The notes below the pieces were generated by a model that saw nothing but the letters and a program-made list of their open reading frames with translations, did not search any database and was not told the origin of the DNA. A program made the translations under genes and the position numbers. A stretch of DNA of 20,260 nucleotides, taken from IMG/VR virus record IMGVR_UViG_3300024344_000166, positions 1 to 20,260 of that record. One strand, written 5' to 3'. Numbering within the stretch: position 1 is the stretch's first letter; every line of letters begins with the position of its first letter. Of the stretch, positions 626 to 14,068 are shown piece after piece. The stretch comes from a virus.

Positions 626-1143
626 TGGCAGAACAATTAGCGGTATTACTCAGAGATGGAAGTCACTCAGGAGCTACTAATAGATTTGCTTTAAAAGTAG
701 AACAACTTAGTGTAGCAATTTCTAGAACTCCTATGCAAATTCCTGTTCCATCGTTGTCTCCAGAAATATTTGATATCCGAATGTCGAGACCTACAATTAC
801 TATTTCAGGAATAGTTGATAACACCCCACAAGATGCATCTGGAAATGATGATACAAACTTTTGGGATATGGAATATATAACTATATCAGGACAAAAATAT
901 TACGTACCTTATAAAAACTTTTTTGAAGAAAAATTATTACTTTTAGATCCTAACAGCACTGACTTGCAAATTGAAGTCGGTAATGCTGCTACTCCTATAT
1001 CTACGTCAGGAACTGTATCAACAGGTGGAGGTATTTACCACGTTGCCATACAACAAATGCAGTTTACAGTAGCTCCGGCTATGGAAGATAGATGGCAGTA
1101 CAGTATCCAGTTAGTTTCTAAATGGAGGAGTGATATAAGCTAA
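625..1143 (+). CDS. Putative tail/baseplate protein
   Basis: A 172-residue protein with predicted beta-rich composition and no membrane segment or signal peptide. The middle has a pattern of short strands (around residues 30-65, with Ser-Arg-Pro-Thr-Ile-Thr-Ile-Ser-Gly) and the C-terminal third is again strand-like, ending in aromatic and charged residues. No catalytic motif is visible. It is locked between the tape-measure-like gene and the large hub-fibre gene, sharing one base with each neighbour (TAATG at both ends), so the three are probably translated together. In tailed phages this position normally holds distal-tail or baseplate components. The family was not recognised; the structural role is inferred from position. 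Confidence 0.55.
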   Translation: MAEQLAVLLRDGSHSGATNRFALKVEQLSVAISRTPMQIPVPSLSPEIFDIRMSRPTITISGIVDNTPQDASGNDDTNFWDMEYITISGQKYYVPYKNFFEEKLLLLDPNSTDLQIEVGNAATPISTSGTVSTGGGIYHVAIQQMQFTVAPAMEDRWQYSIQLVSKWRSDIS

Positions 1144-4100
1144 TGCCTTCCTCACGTGCCATAATATCATATTGGAATGGGAGTGCGTGGGTTGATATGA
1201 ATATATCAGGCACCACTACTACAGCCGTTCGTGGACTTACTATAAACGATCATTTACATGCCCCACAAACAGCTCACATAAAGATTTCTAACCAATCTAG
1301 TAATCCATTTTCTAACACTGGTTCAAACTCTAAAGGTCCCTTTACAGGAGTTTTAGGAGACTTTACGCCTATAAAAATAAGAGATGGTTCTTCATACAGA
1401 GTTATTTTTTCTGGCGTTGTAACAACAACAGCAGAAGAATTTGATCAAAATCAAGGAATGATTTTAAGAGTTGAAGCCACGGATTATTTACTGGAATTAA
1501 AAGATAACACTACAAAAGGAGCATACAACTATCGTGTAGCAGTAGGAGCAAATTTATATGATTCCGTACAAAACACCGATTCTAAAGATACTGAACATGA
1601 ATGGTGGAATGGTTTAGTAAGTTCTAGGGGTGGGCTTATAAAATCGTTTATAACTCAAAACTCTAAAAATATAGATCATCCGGGGGATGCAAATTCATCG
1701 GATTCAAGGTTTGTAGAATCTGTTCAAAAGTATAAACAATCTTTTGTATATAAACTTAACAGTAGGGGAGTTAAATCTGTTTTAACGCACATTCAAAACT
1801 TAGGTGCTGAAGATCCTCATAACGCAGTTTCTGCAGGGCAAGAGTTTGGGTATGATTATTATTTAGATGGGAACTATCAAGAAGCCCCATCGTCAGCTGA
1901 AAAGCCTCAAGCTTATTTTAATTATTTCAAAAGAGGTACAAGACCTGCAACTCAACCAGCAACATATGGTTTAAGTATAGATTTACCATCACCAGACACA
2001 AGCAGTTCAGGGGGTTTTTCTACCACGGGTCAGCGTCACTTAATGACTTCACATGACATTACTAGACCAAAAAGTGAAATATTTACAGGGGTAGTATTAA
2101 CTCATGTAGAAACTAATATAGCTCCTAATGGAGATACTATAGCTTCTTCTAAAGATTCAATGTTTGAATTAGTTGGAGTTCACACAGTTACAAATGGTTC
2201 TAGTTTTGTGTGTACTGGTAAAAATATTGGGGGAGATGTAGCGGGTACAGACAGTGCTGAATACCTAAAGGTAGCTTTAACAACGTTGACAGCAACTACT
2301 ACAGGTCTTACAGAAAAAACTTTTACTGTTGCAAGCACTGCCGGAATGTATGTAGGGCAGGTATTAGAAACTACCCAAAGCAGTGGTTCGGGGGCAACAG
2401 AATTTTTAACAGTCGACTCAATTACTAGCTCTACAGAAGTAGAACTAAATAGAGGACATGATATTGCTCCTCATGATGTAACCTCAGCAACTGTAGCTAC
2501 ACCACATTCATCAGGTCAAACACTTTATGCAAGAGATGTAGCAAGAATTCAATACCTCAGTGATACGGGTACAGTAGGAGCAAGTGATACAGCTTATATA
2601 TTATTATCTGATATAGATAAAAACATACTTGAAAATGATCATATTTGGCAAACAGGTACAGACAGTCTAGTTTGGGTTGGTCAAACAACCACAGGTTCTA
2701 ACTTTAAACTTAGAAGTAGGGTTAGAAACACTATGGGTGTTAATAGAAATTTAAATATGACTGTAGGTGCTGAATCAAGTGGGGACGCATTAAGAGAAAA
2801 AATAGTAGCTAAACTACAAAGACAAACTACAACCCAAGTAAGAGCAGATATAGGAACTTATGACTCACCTCATTTTTATATTGATAATAGTCCTAGTGGT
2901 GTATCAGGTACTAATGCTAATTTAGCTAATCCTTACGTAATGACTTTAAGTAGTAGTGTAAATCCACAATCCTATGGATTGCATGCAGGCATGGTTGTAA
3001 TGAAATTAGATTCTAATAGTCAGCCAACAAGTACTTATGGGTATATAAAAGAAGTAACTAGTACGACTGTAAGTTCTTATATGACAGGTAGTATATCCGC
3101 ATCAGACACATTACGTTATTATGTTCCAGTTAGAGCTGGAGATATAGTAAAAGTACGAAATGATTTATCTAATCTTAATATTAACATGTTAGTAACTAAA
3201 ATTAAGTACTCAGAAGACAATGGGGTTTCTAGTTCTAACTATTCATTAGTAGGGGCTGAGACAGCTAGAGAAGGTGGACACGAAAAGAAAAACTTTGCGG
3301 CAGCTATGGCGGATTCTATGTCGGAAGAAGTAAATCTTCCAATAGCATCACCATTAACACAAGATCCAAATATATCAACTGATTTAGAGTTTGCTACTAA
3401 TGGGGCAGGAAAAGTAAAATGGAATGGTTCTGCAGGTTCTACAGCCTCTGGTAAATTGTATATAGGGGATAAAAAGTATGATATAGCTGCAGATTCTACA
3501 GATGATGCTACGTATGGTCTTAATGGGGATATGAACGCCGATGGTAGACTTTACTATGTTTACTATATAAAGGGAGAAAGTAATCTACGAACTATACAAG
3601 CATCAAGTTATGCTTCTACAGTAACTACTGGAGATCCTGAAGACTATAAAATTATAGCTGAATGTAAATATTCATCAGGTGAAGCTCTATTTACTATGAG
3701 AGTTCAAGTAAAAAACTTTGTTCCTAATGTGTTAGAAGGGTTCGCAACCATCTCTAATAACACAATGACTGCGGCGTTATCTAAAAAAGGTATACAACCA
3801 TGGACATCTAATATTAGTTTTGAAGCTACTGGTACATCAGGGGAATATAATAAGATAAAATTTGGACAAACAGGTTCGATTGGTAGTAATGCTACCCTAT
3901 CTTTTTCAGATGATGACACAGAGGCAATTGCACATAGTGCTACAGGCACTTCAAGTTTAGGCAATAGTTCTTCAGTTGCTGCAGGTAAGGTAACTTTAGC
4001 CGCTGGAACTAACTATATATATAAATCTGTAGGGGATAGTGCTTCATCAACACTGGTAATTACTAATGATTATACTGATGTGTATAAAGATGATCGTGTT

Positions 4101-5372
4101 TTACTGTGTATGGTAAAGGTTGCAAGCTCAGATGATGGATCAGATTCACCATCTATGTTCCCATTTACAGGTAATGAAGCTACTATATCAGCTGGTGTAA
4201 TCTCTGCAGGGGCTATTACGGCTGATACTATACAAGCTAATGCAATAACAGCAGCAAAAATAGCATCTGGAACTATTACAACCTCAATAACTTCTGAAAT
4301 GACTGGAGTTACCATGAATGCTGCCGGACAAATAATGGCAGGAAAATCTTCTTATGGAAGCGGGACTGGATATATTTTAGAAAATAATTCAGGAACCCCT
4401 CGATTCGATATAGGATCTAGTTCTTCTTATTTACGTTGGACTGGAAGTGCTGTGGAAGTTGTCGGTTCTATAACGGGCTCGACAGGAACATTTGGTAACT
4501 GTAGTATGGGTTCTGATGGTTTTGTAGCAGATGGAGAATTATTAGGGTTTCAAATAATGAATGGTTCTACTCACTATGGGGCTATGGGATATAATAGTGG
4601 AGCAGTAATAATATCTACTACTGATAATGATGCATCTACTGTAACCCCACGTATGTATTTTAATGACACTGCTGATGCAGTAGTTCAAATCCCACCGGGT
4701 ACAACCGCAGAAATTAATGAACATCGGTTTGCTAAATATACAGTTGGTGGTAGTGAGTATGCAGTTATGTATCCCGAAGGAGACAGAGATGGAACTGCCG
4801 GTGACCCTTATGCTTTTATAGGAGTTAATGCTTCTAATGCTATAGCCCCTTATTCTCGTATATATTCTCTTTATCATAACCTCACAGCTGGAGCTGTTGG
4901 TGCTGCATCATTAACATTTGGTGACGCTGATACAGGAATTTATAGTGGGGCTGCTAATACTATATCAATAACTTGTAATGGTAATAAAGAGTTAGAAATT
5001 AGTTCAGGTGGTTTGTATGTTGATAGTTGGGCTTCAGGAAGTGGTACTAATGTACATGTTGCATCAGATTTGCTAATTAGAGAAACATCATCTATAAGAT
5101 TTAAAGATAATGTTGTAGATATGGAAACCGATACTTCTAATATTTATGACCTTAGACCAGTAACATTTGATTGGAATGATAAATCAGCTCATCCGGGTAA
5201 AAAAGATATTGGACTAATTGCAGAAGAAACTGAAAAAATATATCCTGAAATAGTAAATTATGATGAAAATGGATTGGCAGAAAGCATAAGTTATCAAAAA
5301 TTATCAGTATTATTGTTATCAGAGATGAAAAAATTAAAAGATGAAATAAAAGAACTAAAGGAGAATAAATAA
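1143..5372 (+). CDS. Tail hub-fibre fusion with C-terminal peptidase S74 chaperone domain
   Basis: A 1409-residue tail protein. Residues 1-130 look like a baseplate-hub or tail-tip beta domain, and strand-rich hub-like sequence continues to about residue 720. A Ser/Thr/Gly-rich shaft follows. Near residues 1015-1045 lies the repeat-like Ala-Ile-Thr-Ala-Asp-Thr-Ile / Ala-Ile-Thr-Ala-Ala-Lys-Ile signature common in host-specificity fibres of the lambda J type. The last 95 residues form an intramolecular chaperone of the peptidase S74 family: Ser-Ser-Ile-Arg-Phe-Lys-Asp-Asn starting at residue 1316, then Leu-Arg-Pro-Val-Thr-Phe-Asp-Trp, Gly-Leu-Ile-Ala-Glu-Glu and a charged Lys/Glu coiled coil. 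In characterised S74 proteins this domain drives trimer folding and then cuts itself off at the conserved serine. The likely role is receptor recognition at the tail tip. It shares one base with both neighbours. Confidence 0.88.
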   Translation: MPSSRAIISYWNGSAWVDMNISGTTTTAVRGLTINDHLHAPQTAHIKISNQSSNPFSNTGSNSKGPFTGVLGDFTPIKIRDGSSYRVIFSGVVTTTAEEFDQNQGMILRVEATDYLLELKDNTTKGAYNYRVAVGANLYDSVQNTDSKDTEHEWWNGLVSSRGGLIKSFITQNSKNIDHPGDANSSDSRFVESVQKYKQSFVYKLNSRGVKSVLTHIQNLGAEDPHNAVSAGQEFGYDYYLDGNYQEAPSSAEKPQAYFNYFKRGTRPATQPATYGLSIDLPSPDTSSSGGFSTTGQRHLMTSHDITRPKSEIFTGVVLTHVETNIAPNGDTIASSKDSMFELVGVHTVTNGSSFVCTGKNIGGDVAGTDSAEYLKVALTTLTATTTGLTEKTFTVASTAGMYVGQVLETTQSSGSGATEFLTVDSITSSTEVELNRGHDIAPHDVTSATVATPHSSGQTLYARDVARIQYLSDTGTVGASDTAYILLSDIDKNILENDHIWQTGTDSLVWVGQTTTGSNFKLRSRVRNTMGVNRNLNMTVGAESSGDALREKIVAKLQRQTTTQVRADIGTYDSPHFYIDNSPSGVSGTNANLANPYVMTLSSSVNPQSYGLHAGMVVMKLDSNSQPTSTYGYIKEVTSTTVSSYMTGSISASDTLRYYVPVRAGDIVKVRNDLSNLNINMLVTKIKYSEDNGVSSSNYSLVGAETAREGGHEKKNFAAAMADSMSEEVNLPIASPLTQDPNISTDLEFATNGAGKVKWNGSAGSTASGKLYIGDKKYDIAADSTDDATYGLNGDMNADGRLYYVYYIKGESNLRTIQASSYASTVTTGDPEDYKIIAECKYSSGEALFTMRVQVKNFVPNVLEGFATISNNTMTAALSKKGIQPWTSNISFEATGTSGEYNKIKFGQTGSIGSNATLSFSDDDTEAIAHSATGTSSLGNSSSVAAGKVTLAAGTNYIYKSVGDSASSTLVITNDYTDVYKDDRVLLCMVKVASSDDGSDSPSMFPFTGNEATISAGVISAGAITADTIQANAITAAKIASGTITTSITSEMTGVTMNAAGQIMAGKSSYGSGTGYILENNSGTPRFDIGSSSSYLRWTGSAVEVVGSITGSTGTFGNCSMGSDGFVADGELLGFQIMNGSTHYGAMGYNSGAVIISTTDNDASTVTPRMYFNDTADAVVQIPPGTTAEINEHRFAKYTVGGSEYAVMYPEGDRDGTAGDPYAFIGVNASNAIAPYSRIYSLYHNLTAGAVGAASLTFGDADTGIYSGAANTISITCNGNKELEISSGGLYVDSWASGSGTNVHVASDLLIRETSSIRFKDNVVDMETDTSNIYDLRPVTFDWNDKSAHPGKKDIGLIAEETEKIYPEIVNYDENGLAESISYQKLSVLLLSEMKKLKDEIKELKENK

Positions 5373-5557
5373 TGCCAGATGTAACAGTATCATTTACAGA
5401 TGCACAATGGACTAGAATAGTAGCAGCTTCGCCAACAATAAAAGCCTTAGATGAAACTGGGGATATTGATGCAACTTATTTGTCTAATAAACTCAAAACT
5501 CTAGTAGCCAATTGGGTTAAAGCACATGAAGAAAAAGCGTCAGTCTCAGACTTCTAA
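5372..5557 (+). CDS. Small conserved-type phage protein downstream of tail fibre
   Basis: A 61-residue protein that starts on the last base of the fibre stop codon (TAATG) behind an AAAGGAG ribosome-binding site. It opens with a short beta-like stretch and a Phe-Thr-Asp-Ala-Gln-Trp motif, followed by two probable helices, the second ending in Ala-Asn-Trp-Val-Lys-Ala-His. It has no cysteines, membrane segment or known motif. Coupling to the fibre gene suggests a small tail or assembly factor, but no function can be assigned. Its 3' end overlaps the next gene by 32 nt. Confidence 0.6.
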   Translation: MPDVTVSFTDAQWTRIVAASPTIKALDETGDIDATYLSNKLKTLVANWVKAHEEKASVSDF

Positions 5558-5921
5558 AATCATACAGTATAGATACGACAATCCTCACGACACTCTTCAA
5601 CAAATAGGAAATGCGTTTAAAGTATCTAGACAGTATATATATAAAGTACTGAAACAGAACAATGTTCCTAGTTTAAGAGCCAAAAGAATGAAAGATGCTC
5701 GTCATTGTAAAATATGTGGCGAGTTAAGTACAAAATTAGTACATGATGGCTCATGCCATTTCCAATATTATAACATCAAAGTAAATTGCCATTATTGTAG
5801 AGTCCCATTCTACAGAAAACGATCTCAAATAGTACAGAAATATAATCGTGGATATGATAGAATGTATTGTAGTGGAGAATGCTATCATACTGAACGCAGA
5901 TTGTATGGATATAAACGATGA
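5526..5921 (+). CDS. Helix-turn-helix plus zinc-finger protein
   Basis: A 131-residue basic protein. Residues 20-50 form a clear helix-turn-helix (Thr-Leu-Gln-Gln-Ile-Gly ... Val-Ser-Arg-Gln-Tyr-Ile-Tyr-Lys-Val-Leu), similar to region 4 of sigma factors and resolvase C-terminal domains. The second half carries paired cysteines: Cys-Lys-Ile-Cys, then Cys-His-Tyr-Cys, and finally Tyr-Cys-Ser-Gly-Glu-Cys, suggesting one or two zinc-binding knuckles of the kind seen in phage HNH-associated and DNA-binding proteins. No complete HNH catalytic core is visible. It overlaps the preceding gene by 32 nt; no later start keeps the HTH intact, so the start at 5526 is preferred. It lies immediately before the sigma-like gene and could be a transcription regulator acting with it, or a degenerate homing endonuclease. 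Confidence 0.7.
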   Translation: MKKKRQSQTSKIIQYRYDNPHDTLQQIGNAFKVSRQYIYKVLKQNNVPSLRAKRMKDARHCKICGELSTKLVHDGSCHFQYYNIKVNCHYCRVPFYRKRSQIVQKYNRGYDRMYCSGECYHTERRLYGYKR

Positions 5922-6417
5922 TTTAATAACCCAATGGGAACCTAAAATACAAAAAATGGTGTCTACTTCTTATATTGCGGGGCTTGATAAGGAAGATATA
6001 GCACAAGAACTTAGAATTTCACTTGTAAAAGCAGCTAAAGCATTTAATCCAGATAAGGGAGCAATTTTTCATACTTATCTACACACATCTTTAGTTAACA
6101 CCATTAGAACTTTAATAAATAAAGCACAGCGTCAACTTAATTCTAGAAGTATTGATATGACCGATATTTATGAAACTACTCCAGCTGAAATTATTAGAGC
6201 ACTTACAGATCCAAATCACTATCAAGAAGAGGTAGATATTAGTCTGTGGGTAGATTCACAGAATTTAGCAAATAAAGAAAAGTTATTTCTTCAATTAAAA
6301 TTAGAAGGTTTAACTATGGAAGAGATCACTGAGGATTTAGGTGAATCAGCATACAAAGTTAGACAAGGACTTAGAGACAAACTGCAACAAGAAAGTGATA
6401 CGGACGAAGATGCCTAG
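5905..6417 (+). CDS. Sigma-70-like RNA polymerase sigma factor
   Basis: A 170-residue phage sigma factor predicted to redirect host RNA polymerase to phage promoters. Residues 27-73 match sigma region 2: a Leu-Asp-Lys-Glu-Asp-Ile-Ala-Gln-Glu-Leu core that binds the polymerase clamp, then Ala-Phe-Asn-Pro-Asp-Lys-Gly and Phe-His-Thr-Tyr, the usual (F/Y)DPxKGxxFxTY promoter-melting segment. Residues 123-162 form the region 4 helix-turn-helix (Leu-Glu-Gly-Leu-Thr-Met-Glu-Glu-Ile-Thr-Glu-Asp-Leu-Gly), expected to read the -35 element. Region 1 and most of region 3 are missing, as in compact ECF-like and phage late sigma factors. The frame is open upstream to an ATG at 5848, but those 19 residues do not resemble a sigma factor and would overlap the HTH gene by 74 nt, so 5905 (17 nt overlap) is preferred. 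Confidence 0.85.
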   Translation: MDINDDLITQWEPKIQKMVSTSYIAGLDKEDIAQELRISLVKAAKAFNPDKGAIFHTYLHTSLVNTIRTLINKAQRQLNSRSIDMTDIYETTPAEIIRALTDPNHYQEEVDISLWVDSQNLANKEKLFLQLKLEGLTMEEITEDLGESAYKVRQGLRDKLQQESDTDEDA

Positions 6418-11654: not shown

Positions 11655-11912
11655 ATGAAATATAACGAAGAAGAAATAATAAAAGAAATTGCTGAGTATG
11701 TACAAAATACTTATGGAGAGCATTATAGTGAAGGAGATGTTCAGACTTTAGACTTTATAGAAGCGTGTGGCGATGCCGAAGCGTTCTGTAGGAGCAATAT
11801 TTTAAAGTATGCATCTCGTTATGATAAAAAGGGAACACCTCGTAAAGACATTTTCAAGATTATTCATTACGCTATGCTGTTACTCCACTTTAGCGACAAG
11901 AATAGTAAATGA
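11655..11912 (+). CDS. DUF3310-like protein (possible nucleotide-kinase-related)
   Basis: An 85-residue helical protein starting one base after the polymerase stop. The stretch from Thr-Leu-Asp-Phe-Ile-Glu-Ala through Phe-Cys-Arg-Ser-Asn-Ile-Leu-Lys-Tyr-Ala-Ser-Arg-Tyr and Lys-Lys-Gly to a final hydrophobic helix follows the DUF3310 layout (FIE-x-n-F-x-GN-x-IKY-x-x-R-y-x-KKG-x-x-DL-x-K). That family includes small phage proteins related to the T7 gp1.7 nucleotide kinase region. The usual Gly-Asn is Ser-Asn here. It probably acts in nucleotide metabolism during replication, but the biochemical role of this short form is uncertain. It overlaps the next gene by 4 nt (ATGA). Confidence 0.6.
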   Translation: MKYNEEEIIKEIAEYVQNTYGEHYSEGDVQTLDFIEACGDAEAFCRSNILKYASRYDKKGTPRKDIFKIIHYAMLLLHFSDKNSK

Positions 11913-12430
11913 TAATAATACCTCACACACAAGAAATGATTGATAGAGCTAAGGTTCGAGCTGATCAAATGGGTGAAATACGCAATTCGATCACTCGTGG
12001 GGCAGGTAACCTAGCTGGTTTCTTAGGAGAAGAAGCTATAAAAGAATATCTTGGGGCTGAAATAGTAGAATCTGACGAGAAGTTTGATTACGACATATTC
12101 CTTAACGGAGAATGTATAGAAGTAAAAACTAAAAGAAGAACAGTAGCTCCCAAAGATTATTATGATGTATCCGTTGCATCTACAAGTACCCACCAACGCC
12201 CTGATACTTATATCTTTATTAGCCTAGAATTTAATGAATCGATAAAAAACAATGGGGCAAAAGCTTACAGGGGGCTAAAGAACATTTGGTTGTTAGGTAA
12301 GAAAGACGCTAAACAGTACTTTGAAGAGGCTACTCTCTGGAAGAAGGGCGATGTAGATACTTCTAATGAATTTACTACCTTGGTAGATATGTGGAACCTA
12401 CCGATATCAAAGCTGATTTGCAAATTTTAA
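11909..12430 (+). CDS. PD-(D/E)xK family nuclease
   Basis: A 173-residue predicted endonuclease. The N-terminal helix ends in a Phe-Leu-Gly-Glu-Glu-Ala motif (Glu41), typical of the first acidic residue in this fold. The core motif follows as Asp60/Asp62, then Cys-Ile-Glu71-Val-Lys73, the D-(x)n-E-x-K catalytic triad on adjacent strands. A later aromatic segment (Thr-Tyr-Ile-Phe-Ile-Ser-Leu-Glu) and Asn-Ile-Trp-Leu-Leu-Gly are the expected core strands. Phage proteins of this type include Holliday-junction resolvase-like and restriction-like enzymes; substrate cannot be predicted here. It overlaps the DUF3310-like gene by 4 nt and is the last gene of the replication block. The -35 hexamer of the AIPR promoter lies inside its final codons. 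Confidence 0.75.
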   Translation: MIIIPHTQEMIDRAKVRADQMGEIRNSITRGAGNLAGFLGEEAIKEYLGAEIVESDEKFDYDIFLNGECIEVKTKRRTVAPKDYYDVSVASTSTHQRPDTYIFISLEFNESIKNNGAKAYRGLKNIWLLGKKDAKQYFEEATLWKKGDVDTSNEFTTLVDMWNLPISKLICKF

Positions 12431-12446
12431 TTTCTTTGGGTATAAT
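12418..12446 (+). promoter_or_regulatory. Strong sigma-70-type promoter for the AIPR gene
   Basis: TTGCAA at 12418-12423 (4 of 6 to TTGACA), a 17-bp spacer, and a perfect TATAAT at 12441-12446. Transcription would begin near 12453. This is the best -35/-10 pair in the window and drives only the gene at 12541, after a 110-nt gap. The bases just before the -10 (TTTGGG) resemble those before the TATAAT at 16709 (TTTGAG). Confidence 0.75.
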
Positions 12447-12452
12447 AAAAAA

Positions 12453-12497
12453 ATAGCATTTGCTATAACTTCATTGTTATACTCACCAATATGGGAG
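12453..12497 (+). promoter_or_regulatory. Palindrome and stem-loops in the AIPR leader (possible operator or RNA switch)
   Basis: Three inverted repeats follow the predicted start site. ATAGCA-TT-TGCTAT (12453-12466) is a perfect 6-bp-arm palindrome at +1. TATAAC-TTCATT-GTTATA (12464-12481) is a hairpin sharing three bases with the first, so in RNA the two could not form together. CTC-A-CC ... GG-GAG (12482-12497) is a small hairpin with one bulged base. The first is well placed as a repressor operator; the second and third could act in the mRNA leader. Confidence 0.5.
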
Positions 12498-12526
12498 TTG
12501 AAGCAGGAAGTAAACATAAATTGCAC

Positions 12527-12533
12527 AAGGAGG
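12527..12533 (+). promoter_or_regulatory. Consensus ribosome-binding site of the AIPR gene
   Basis: AAGGAGG ends seven bases before the ATG at 12541. It fixes the start codon and predicts efficient translation once the leader upstream is transcribed. Confidence 0.85.
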
Positions 12534-12540
12534 CTTACTC

Positions 12541-13728
12541 ATGGCAATTAAAAAACACAAGCTTCTAGTAGAAGATATTAGAAGAATTAGACCAAGGCGA
12601 GAAGGGTCAGAAAATATTCATTTCGCACTAGTGCCCTTTTCTGGGCTACCGCAAGGACTACCCGATAAACCAAACGTCAGATCACGAGACGATTTAGGCT
12701 TAGGGATAACACCATCGCATCCAGTATATAAAAATTTGGACAAGACGATTAAAGGTGAAGTGGGCACGCCAAGCAAATTCCATTTAAAAAATGGTGGGAT
12801 TAATTTGGCGGTATCATCAGTTTCAAAGATCAGTGATACTGAATATGAAATATTCGTTGATGAAGAATCTGAAGGTATTACAAACGGGGGGCACACATAT
12901 GAGCTTATTACTCGAAATGTTGATGCCGGCACAGCTGCTGAAGAAAGTGTCTTCGTACAAATCATTGAAGGCATGGATACCGATGTAAAGCAAGAAGTTG
13001 CTATTTCTAAAAATTCTCAAGTAAATGTAGATAAGGTTTCTATGTTTAATACTTTGGGACTATTTGATTCTTTGAAAGACTACTTAAATTCAATTCATCA
13101 CCCATATGCCCCTTTGATAGCATATGAAATGAATTCGCAGGCTCCTATAGATGTAGGAGATGTGATATCTAAAATGATGATTTTAGACTCAGAAAAGTAT
13201 CCATTATACTTTGGGGATGACAGAGCACAGACTAGACACCCTGTAGGAGTGTATACAGGAAAGACCGCAGCATTACAGAGGTACGAGGATAGGATAGAAG
13301 TTTATGAGAAAATGTTTAAAATCTTACCTAATATTTTAGAGTTGTCTGAAATACTTCAAGTAGGTGTTGCTAAAACTAATACTAAACTATTTGGAAATGG
13401 TGCTAATAATAGGAAGTGGGTTAAATCTACCCCAGTTAAAGAATTTCCAATCATTGGTAGTTCTGCTCCTTATATAATAGCTGGGCTAGTAAAAGGTCTA
13501 TTATCTGGATTTAGAGTTTTAGTAGATCCTGATAGCCTTGATTGGAAGATTAAGTTTTCTGATGTAAAGAAGATTGCTGATAACTGTATAGCAGACATGA
13601 CTGACCTTCTAAGAAACGTTGGTAATGACTTTGATAATGAAGTTAACCCAATGGCTAGAAGCATTACGTTATGGAGTGGGGCGGCTAAGATTGTAAAGAC
13701 TAAGGCAGATCAATACTTACTTAGCTAA
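12541..13728 (+). CDS. AIPR-family (abortive infection phage resistance-like) protein
   Basis: A 395-residue protein that matches the layout of the AIPR family (PF10592). Residues 80-87 read Phe-His-Leu-Lys-Asn-Gly-Gly-Ile, the counterpart of the family's F-x-x-R-N-x-G-I motif. Asn115-Gly-Gly-His-Thr119 stands where most members have Asn-Gly-Cys-Gln-Thr, and Asn158-Ser-Gln160 matches the conserved Ala-x-Asn-Ser-Gln motif. The family is named after a lactococcal abortive-infection protein and is related to ParB-like/DGQHR (DndB-type) proteins; its biochemistry is poorly known. Members are often longer (about 500-700 residues). It is isolated from its neighbours by a dedicated promoter upstream and a terminator downstream, unlike the overlapping genes on either side. 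In a phage it could exclude other phages or counter host defence; this is inference. The His replacing Gln in the NGGHT motif may alter activity. Confidence 0.75.
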   Translation: MAIKKHKLLVEDIRRIRPRREGSENIHFALVPFSGLPQGLPDKPNVRSRDDLGLGITPSHPVYKNLDKTIKGEVGTPSKFHLKNGGINLAVSSVSKISDTEYEIFVDEESEGITNGGHTYELITRNVDAGTAAEESVFVQIIEGMDTDVKQEVAISKNSQVNVDKVSMFNTLGLFDSLKDYLNSIHHPYAPLIAYEMNSQAPIDVGDVISKMMILDSEKYPLYFGDDRAQTRHPVGVYTGKTAALQRYEDRIEVYEKMFKILPNILELSEILQVGVAKTNTKLFGNGANNRKWVKSTPVKEFPIIGSSAPYIIAGLVKGLLSGFRVLVDPDSLDWKIKFSDVKKIADNCIADMTDLLRNVGNDFDNEVNPMARSITLWSGAAKIVKTKADQYLLS

Positions 13729-13734
13729 AGCAGA

Positions 13735-13769
13735 CTTAGATAATAACTAGACTTTAGTTACTTTCTAAG
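13735..13769 (+). repeat. Nested inverted repeat after the AIPR stop codon
   Basis: Starting six bases after the stop codon, CTTAGA (13735-13740) pairs with TCTAAG (13764-13769), and inside it AACTA (13745-13749) pairs with TAGTT (13755-13759). The two stems are separated by internal loops of exactly four bases on each side and closed by a five-base loop. The symmetry suggests a real folded element, for example an RNA stability or processing structure, rather than chance. Confidence 0.5.
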
Positions 13770-13776
13770 CTATACT
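13748..13776 (+). promoter_or_regulatory. Weak candidate promoter upstream of the terminator
   Basis: TAGACT (13748-13753, 4 of 6 to TTGACA), 17-bp spacer, TATACT (13771-13776, 5 of 6 to TATAAT). A transcript would start near 13783, just ahead of the terminator hairpin at 13799, so it would either be a roughly 50-nt RNA or reach the next genes only by readthrough. In AT-rich DNA such a match can occur by chance. Confidence 0.3.
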
Positions 13777-13796
13777 TATAGTACATTAATTTGTAC
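13770..13796 (+). repeat. Two short palindromes between AIPR gene and terminator
   Basis: CTATA-CT-TATAG (13770-13781) and GTACA-TTAATT-TGTAC (13781-13796) are perfect inverted repeats placed end to end. They lie between the nested repeat and the terminator, so nearly every base of this intergenic stretch is in some dyad. They could be protein-binding sites or RNA hairpins. Confidence 0.4.
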
Positions 13797-13798
13797 AG

Positions 13799-13834
13799 AC
13801 CCCCCGTTACACGCTTGAGACGGGGGGTTTATTA
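13799..13834 (+). terminator. Rho-independent terminator
   Basis: ACCCCCCGT (13799-13807) pairs over nine bases with ACGGGGGGT (13820-13828) across a 12-base loop, followed by a short T-rich tail (TTTATTATAA). The G:C-rich stem stands out sharply from the AT-rich surroundings. It ends transcription of the AIPR cassette. The tail is weaker than a classic T-run, so some readthrough into the next genes is possible. Confidence 0.85.
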
Positions 13835-13849
13835 TAAGGAGAATCAACA

Positions 13850-14068
13850 ATGGCAAAAGTAAGTGCCCACATTGGATATACTTTTAGAGTAGGTCCATTA
13901 GACCAAAATCAATACGGAAGGGTTGACTTAACAGTTGACCAAATAGATACTGAACTACCTACCGAACCACAGCTAGAAGATGCTGAAAAAGCAGCTGATA
14001 TTATCTGGACGTTTATAAAAGGCAAGGTAGACACACAGATCGAGGCTATGTTAAATGAAGAAGAATAA
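13850..14068 (+). CDS. Small acidic protein at the head of the recombination block
   Basis: A 72-residue protein behind an AAGGAGA ribosome-binding site, starting 16 bases after the terminator. The first half is strand-like (Ile-Gly-Tyr-Thr-Phe-Arg-Val, Tyr-Gly-Arg-Val-Asp-Leu-Thr-Val), the second half a probable amphipathic helix rich in Glu and Asp. No known family was recognised. It overlaps the following MazG-like gene by 14 nt and heads a run of six overlapping genes that includes recA, so it is probably co-expressed with them. Confidence 0.6.
   Translation: MAKVSAHIGYTFRVGPLDQNQYGRVDLTVDQIDTELPTEPQLEDAEKAADIIWTFIKGKVDTQIEAMLNEEE

What the first reader, a model, noticed from the sequence alone, without database searches (positions are those of the whole stretch)
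12418..13834. Stand-alone AIPR cassette inside a phage replication region
The AIPR-like gene is the only gene here with both a near-consensus promoter (TTGCAA-17-TATAAT) and a strong terminator, while all its neighbours overlap. That is the signature of a moron-like, independently expressed gene. The family is linked to abortive infection, so a phage copy could block rival phages, neutralise a host system or act in some unrelated role. Its motif Asn-Gly-Gly-His-Thr departs from the usual Asn-Gly-Cys-Gln-Thr. The family match and promoter are seen directly; function is inferred.
Basis: partly seen in the sequence, partly recalled or inferred. Interest (0 to 1): 0.7.

Follow-up and report, generated by a model that had tools for sequence, protein, structure and literature searches.

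The report
Swappable AIPR gene cassette in phages
These phages carry, inside their DNA-replication operon, a self-contained gene with its own start and stop signals; nearly identical phages hold very different versions of it, which suggests a tool used in conflicts with hosts or rival viruses, although what it does is untested.

Summary
ORF 12541-13728 (395 aa) matches AIPR (PF10592) at 58.7 bits, cutoff 25. The only two intergenic gaps over 28 nt in the window flank it; they hold a promoter and a terminator-like hairpin that persist in relatives although the sequence around them changes. The cassette is accessory: 8 of 59 distinct relative intervals (11 of 49 contigs) have it, and precise empty sites exist. 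It is also exchanged as alleles: a sister phage 99-100% identical in polymerase, nuclease and recA carries an AIPR only 57-59% identical (dS 1.28 against 0.03-0.07 in flanks). In the window, only the tail fibre region differs comparably between those two phages. Two of eight complete copies are frameshifted. The protein belongs to a compact subfamily (about 400 aa, [ND]GGHT motif), also found in 49 bacterial loci; canonical AIPR are 556-816 aa with NGxQT. The predicted structure (pLDDT 93) resembles ParB/DndB/GmrSD-type proteins. Cyanobacterial members sit in dnd phosphorothioation loci beside dndB and dndC. No integrase was found in 40 relatives' contigs, so 'prophage moron' is not supported. 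Best reading: an early-expressed conflict gene, more likely counter-defence than abortive infection. Function is inferred. New variant of a known kind.

The parts
12418..12446 (+). Promoter P1 (TTGCAA-17-TATAAT). The -35 lies in the 3' end of the upstream nuclease gene, the -10 at the left edge of the cassette.
   Evidence: -10 kept in all 12 aligned leaders; TTGACA-18-TATAAT in L009/L084, where the upstream gene is DUF3310
12453..12466 (+). Inverted repeat 1 just after the -10 (ATAGCA-TT-TGCTAT): candidate operator or 5' hairpin
   Evidence: symmetric changes in other alleles (TGTAGC..GCTACA in L005, TGTAAC..GTTACA in L007/L008)
12468..12511 (+). Second stem-loop of the leader
   Evidence: whole-leader z -2.2 to -3.1 in six alleles; arms swapped between L005/L007 (GGTC..GACC) and L008 (GACC..GGTC)
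12541..13728 (+). Compact AIPR protein, 395 aa, predicted ParB/Srx-like fold
   Evidence: PF10592 58.7 bits; AlphaFold2 pLDDT 92.9; Foldseek
12883..12897 (+). NGGHT motif (aa 115-119), counterpart of NGxQT in canonical AIPR and probably of DGQHR in DndB
   Evidence: G116 G117 H118 T119 invariant in 47 aligned homologs; canonical motif; register with DndB DGQHR (weak score)
13748..13776 (+). Second promoter-like element P2 (TAGACT-17-TATACT) between AIPR and the hairpin
   Evidence: 9 of 12; -35 kept in all alleles, -10 in all but L009 (TATCCT)
13797..13835 (+). Terminator-like hairpin plus short U-tract, right end of the cassette, directly before the RBS of the next gene
   Evidence: z -5.8; hairpins with different paired sequence in L005, L008, L009, L020
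11909..12430 (+). Upstream flank: putative PD-(D/E)XK-type nuclease gene, often but not always next to AIPR
   Evidence: motif by eye (YDIF..IEVKTK), no Pfam match; absent in L009/L084, present without AIPR in L029, L033, L093 and others
13850..14068 (+). Downstream flank: small conserved gene whose RBS marks the right boundary of the cassette
   Evidence: syntenic in most relatives; empty sites in L010, L012, L015, L040, L102, L107

Best explanation
Shown: a modular single-gene cassette (promoter -10, structured leader, compact AIPR gene, terminator-like hairpin) sits between the stop codon of one replication-operon gene and the RBS of the next. It is present or absent among close relatives and is exchanged between phage backbones as alternative alleles. 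Inferred from structure prediction: the protein has a ParB/Srx-like (DndB/GmrSD-like) nucleotide-binding fold without the N-terminal region of canonical AIPR. Most likely mechanism (inference): it is made early by host RNA polymerase, independently of the phage operons, and its helical, variable C-terminal part lets it engage a variable host target, probably a defence system of the AIPR/DndB or DNA-modification type, and block or mis-regulate it. A phage then needs the allele that fits its current host. The leader dyads may be operators through which it limits its own expression, as DndB does.
For: Cassette and accessory status. Allele exchange: window against L005 dS 0.03-0.07 in pol, nuclease and recA but 1.28 in AIPR; L009 against L020 dS 2.5 in pol, 2.05 in recA but 0.20 in AIPR. 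Only AIPR and the tail-fibre region diverge between window and L005, which fits host-directed functions. AIPR dN/dS of 0.15-0.33 is higher than 0.02-0.05 for pol/recA, with the C-terminus most variable. Two natural frameshifts in otherwise near-identical genes suggest conditional value. Fold. Cyanobacterial relatives lie in dndC/dndB loci. The same region elsewhere holds a cytosine methyltransferase. A virulent lifestyle is suggested by no integrase in 40 contigs; a virulent phage gains little from aborting its own infection. DndB binds two palindromes at its own promoter (PMC4507180).
Against: No experiment. No host is known and no matching host defence was found. The cyanobacterial dnd-linked clade is not the phage's nearest clade, and the neighbours tested in the nearer bacterial clade gave no defence match. 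Bacterial compact AIPRs may themselves be defence genes, which would favour a rival-exclusion role. Best PDB match is only E=0.03. The allele pattern fits any antagonistic role.
Confidence: 0.42

Rival explanations
1. Rival exclusion: the phage expresses AIPR early to block competing phages in the same cell, and alleles differ because each spares its own carrier.
For: AIPR and AbiU are named for phage resistance and the window protein has a weak PADLOC AbiU match, stronger in allele L020; an own promoter suits expression independent of the phage programme; allele turnover fits phage-phage arms races.
Against: No partner immunity gene travels with it: the nuclease is missing in L009/L084. No integrase was found. 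The putative toxic N-terminal region is lacking.
Confidence: 0.22
2. Regulator or nucleotide-hydrolysing housekeeper of phage replication or transcription, like DndB acting as an NTP-dependent DNA-binding repressor, under its own autoregulated promoter.
For: DndB-like fold; leader dyads at the promoter; a distant homolog, L146, overlaps dnaE in a phage replication operon.
Against: Absent from most close relatives, broken in two, and swapped as divergent alleles, unlike a housekeeping replication gene.
Confidence: 0.18
3. Modification or restriction-related enzyme: works with the adjacent nuclease or other slot genes as a DNA processing or restriction module.
For: The nuclease is next to AIPR in most carriers and is also mobile (window against L020 nuclease dS 0.43 while pol is saturated); region occupants include a cytosine methyltransferase.
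Against: L009 and L084 have AIPR without the nuclease, and many phages have the nuclease without AIPR.
Confidence: 0.08
4. Neutral passenger or assembly artefact: a random insert with no function.
For: Two of eight complete copies are frameshifted.
Against: The ORF, motif, promoter and hairpin are kept across alleles with near-saturated dS; dN/dS is below 0.35; the same allele types appear in several independent assemblies.
Confidence: 0.05

Closest known systems
AIPR family PF10592 (AbiU1-type abortive-infection proteins; MzaE)
   Same: Profile match at 58.7 bits; same core with an NG-x-x-T motif; weak PADLOC AbiU match in the window protein and a stronger one in allele L020
   Different: 395 aa instead of 556-816 aa, motif at residue 115 instead of about 300, NGGHT instead of NGxQT, no N-terminal extension
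DndB (PF14072), ParB-superfamily regulator of DNA phosphorothioation
   Same: Similar predicted fold (viral DNA-sulfur modification proteins among Foldseek hits); G-x-H motif register; promoter dyads; cyanobacterial relatives beside dndB/dndC
   Different: No DndB profile match; motif NGGHT, not DGQHR; no dnd genes recognised in the window
GmrSD/SspE N-terminal (DUF262) and ParB-N nucleotide-binding domains
   Same: Foldseek: GmrSD N-terminal proteins E 1.8e-4 to 8.6e-4; ParB-N top PDB hit at E 0.03, SspE and PadC in the top 15
   Different: No nuclease half; low sequence identity; nucleotide binding not shown
Antiviral hotspots of P2/P4 phages (PMC9122126)
   Same: Variable slot between conserved genes, with defence-type cargo including AIPR
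   Different: Here in apparently virulent phages inside the replication operon, single gene, with alleles of one gene exchanged

Membership tests
AIPR (PF10592) | Profile score above Pfam's gathering score | tested here: met
   58.7 bits against 25; all carriers above the cutoff
AIPR (PF10592) | NGxQT motif of canonical members | tested here: not met
   NGGHT; canonical NG[GCALS]QT in the sampled alphaproteobacterial AIPRs, compact ones [ND]GGHT
AIPR (PF10592) | N-terminal region (reported HEPN domain, PMC3506569) | tested here: not met
   Length 395 aa, motif at 115 instead of about 300; model starts with beta strands
AIPR (PF10592) | Abortive-infection or phage-resistance activity | not testable with these tools
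   Needs expression and plaque assays
DndB (PF14072) | DndB profile match and DGQHR motif | tested here: not met
   No PF14072 match; NGGHT motif; hhalign to one DndB gives probability 1.7%
ParB/Srx superfamily | ParB-type fold | tested here: met
   pLDDT 92.9 model; GmrSD-N, DNA-sulfur modification and ParB-like hits in BFVD; PDB ParB-N only E 0.03
ParB/Srx superfamily | NTP binding or hydrolysis | not testable with these tools
   Needs purified protein
Moron | Own promoter and terminator, absent from close relatives | tested here: met
   By sequence; expression itself not tested
Moron | Carried and expressed by a prophage | tested here: inconclusive
   No PF00589 integrase in 40 contigs, but most contigs are fragments

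The most novel reading that the evidence does not exclude
A virulent-phage locus at which alleles of one compact ParB/DndB-fold AIPR protein are exchanged, as tail fibres are, to match host defences: a new class of counter-defence proteins aimed at AIPR/DndB or DNA-modification systems, with self-regulation through leader palindromes.
Probability: 0.22. Interest if true: 0.8.

Novelty: new variant of a known kind. Interest (0 to 1): 0.56.

Why it matters
AIPR proteins are listed as phage-resistance factors, yet I found little mechanistic work on them in the papers searched. A compact form that phages themselves swap as alleles, with flanks nearly identical, gives a natural experiment: the conserved core and the variable C-terminus point to where specificity may lie, and two natural frameshift copies and many empty sites serve as controls. 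The [ND]GGHT motif links stand-alone bacterial genes, dnd-locus genes and phage genes in one testable subfamily.

Tried and rejected
AlphaFold2 with the 7 phage sequences alone gave pLDDT 39.5 and was discarded; a 47-sequence alignment worked. Sequence searches of the PDB found nothing credible. DndB profile-profile comparison was not significant with single DndB sequences. No PHROG above chance and no NCBIfam match for AIPR. No Rfam family in the window. No direct repeats at the cassette ends, so no sign of a transposon-like insertion. Nearest cultured phages could not be identified: TerL matches only Bacteroides phages at 25%, so the host is unknown. Neighbours tested in the nearer bacterial clade gave no defence match. 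'Sequencing error' for both frameshifts was considered: the 1-nt insertion in L003 could be one, the 8-nt deletion in L061 hardly. The gut record MT838632 (L148) with a broken compact AIPR looks like a bacterial restriction island, not a phage.

Full report
What is there. The window is a 20,260-base IMG/VR viral record. ORF 12541-13728 encodes 395 aa and matches AIPR (PF10592) well above the curated cutoff (58.7 bits against 25). PHROGs and NCBIfam give nothing significant, and PADLOC a weak AbiU match. Among the 25 genes, all on the + strand, 22 of 24 junctions overlap or are at most 28 nt; the two exceptions, 110 and 121 nt, flank AIPR.

Promoter and terminator. Promoter-like strings are as common as in shuffles, so P1 alone would prove nothing. 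But the -10 TATAATA is kept in all relatives that carry AIPR. In L009 and L084, where the gene upstream is DUF3310 and not the nuclease, the -35 is perfect TTGACA. The -35 lies in the coding end of whichever gene is upstream, the -10 at the cassette edge. The right end is a strong hairpin (13797-13830, z -5.8), with hairpins of different sequence at the same place in other alleles; the U-tract is weak. A second promoter-like element (13748-13776) lies between AIPR and the hairpin and is largely conserved; its role is unclear.

Accessory status. Relatives were collected through recA and polymerase. Of 59 distinct polymerase/DUF3310-to-13850 intervals, 8 hold AIPR. A profile search found AIPR in 11 of 49 related contigs, always in this slot. 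In empty sites (L010, L012, L015 and others) the DUF3310 stop overlaps or adjoins the RBS of the 13850 gene. Other phages hold a cytosine methyltransferase, DUF7004 proteins or unassigned ORFs in the region. These counts come from sequence similarity searches and are not population frequencies.

Allele exchange. Window and L005 are 99-100% identical in polymerase, DUF3310, nuclease and recA, but 57-59% in AIPR, with dS 0.03-0.07 in flanks and 1.28 in AIPR. DNA identity drops at the -10 and recovers across the downstream gene. Conversely L009 and L020 are far apart in polymerase and recA (dS 2.5 and 2.05) but close in AIPR (dS 0.20). Over the shared part of the window, only the tail fibre (28%) and its neighbour (63%) diverge like AIPR between window and L005; against L008, however, the fibre is 94% over a partial match while AIPR is 58%, so the two do not always change together. 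dN/dS of AIPR is 0.15-0.33 against 0.02-0.05 for polymerase and recA. The C-terminus and residues 276-300 vary most. L003 carries a 1-nt insertion and L061 an 8-nt deletion in AIPR genes otherwise near-identical (0 and 1 substitutions) to intact copies.

Subfamily. A scan of 84,980 genomes found 49 loci with [ND]GGHT; full ORFs are mostly about 390-425 aa, mostly with a gap above 85 nt or a divergent gene upstream. Canonical AIPRs in alphaproteobacteria are 556-816 aa with NGxQT near residue 300. So NGGHT marks a compact subfamily that lacks the N-terminal region, where a HEPN toxin has been reported (PMC3506569). The phage alleles form one clade on a long stem. Cyanobacterial members lie beside a DndB-family gene, with a DndC/PAPS-reductase-type gene divergently upstream in L175, L183 and L188; this clade is not the phage's nearest.

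Structure. With 47 sequences AlphaFold2 gives pLDDT 92.9, pTM 0.85. Foldseek against viral models finds an AIPR protein, GmrSD N-terminal domains, DNA-sulfur modification proteins and ParB-like proteins. In the PDB the top hit is a ParB-N domain at E 0.03, with SspE and PadC in the top 15. DndB binds two palindromes at its own promoter (PMC4507180), and PMC12704722 reports ATP/GTP binding by a DndB-like protein. The AIPR leader also has a dyad just after the -10 and a second stem-loop, with symmetric changes between alleles. This is compatible with an operator or with an RNA hairpin.

Interpretation. Cassette anatomy, presence/absence and allele exchange are shown by the sequences; the fold is a confident prediction. 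Function is inferred. No integrase in 40 contigs, no N-terminal effector region, no travelling immunity partner and allele replacement alongside tail-fibre change in one pair favour a host-directed counter-defence role over abortive infection or rival exclusion, but do not prove it.

Noticed in passing
5848-6417 (and 5526-5921): Phage-encoded sigma-70-like protein (Sigma70_r2 41.5 bits), preceded by a small protein with a weak Sigma70_r4 match; might read P2-type promoters.
   Followed up: no
1143-5372: 1,409-aa tail fibre with an S74 chaperone; only 28% identical in the near-identical sister phage L005.
   Followed up: partly
11909-12430: Putative PD-(D/E)XK nuclease gene exchanged on its own between backbones (dS 0.43 to L020 while pol is saturated).
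   Followed up: partly
L093:10001-11122: C5 cytosine methyltransferase (PF00145, 288 bits) between polymerase and DUF3310 in a related phage.
   Followed up: no
L146:7899-9083: Distant compact AIPR (24%) overlapping a phage DnaE gene, with a MazG-like gene upstream (by eye).
   Followed up: partly
L147:4902-5930: Bacillus phage Goe8 AIPR beside tRNA-His guanylyltransferase, a sigma factor and RtcB; it groups with a Bacillus gene.
   Followed up: partly
L175, L183, L188: Compact AIPR beside dndB with divergent dndC-type gene in cyanobacteria: a possible unrecognised dnd accessory gene.
   Followed up: partly
13748-13776: Conserved promoter-like element placed before, not after, the terminator-like hairpin; the arrangement is unexplained.
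   Followed up: no
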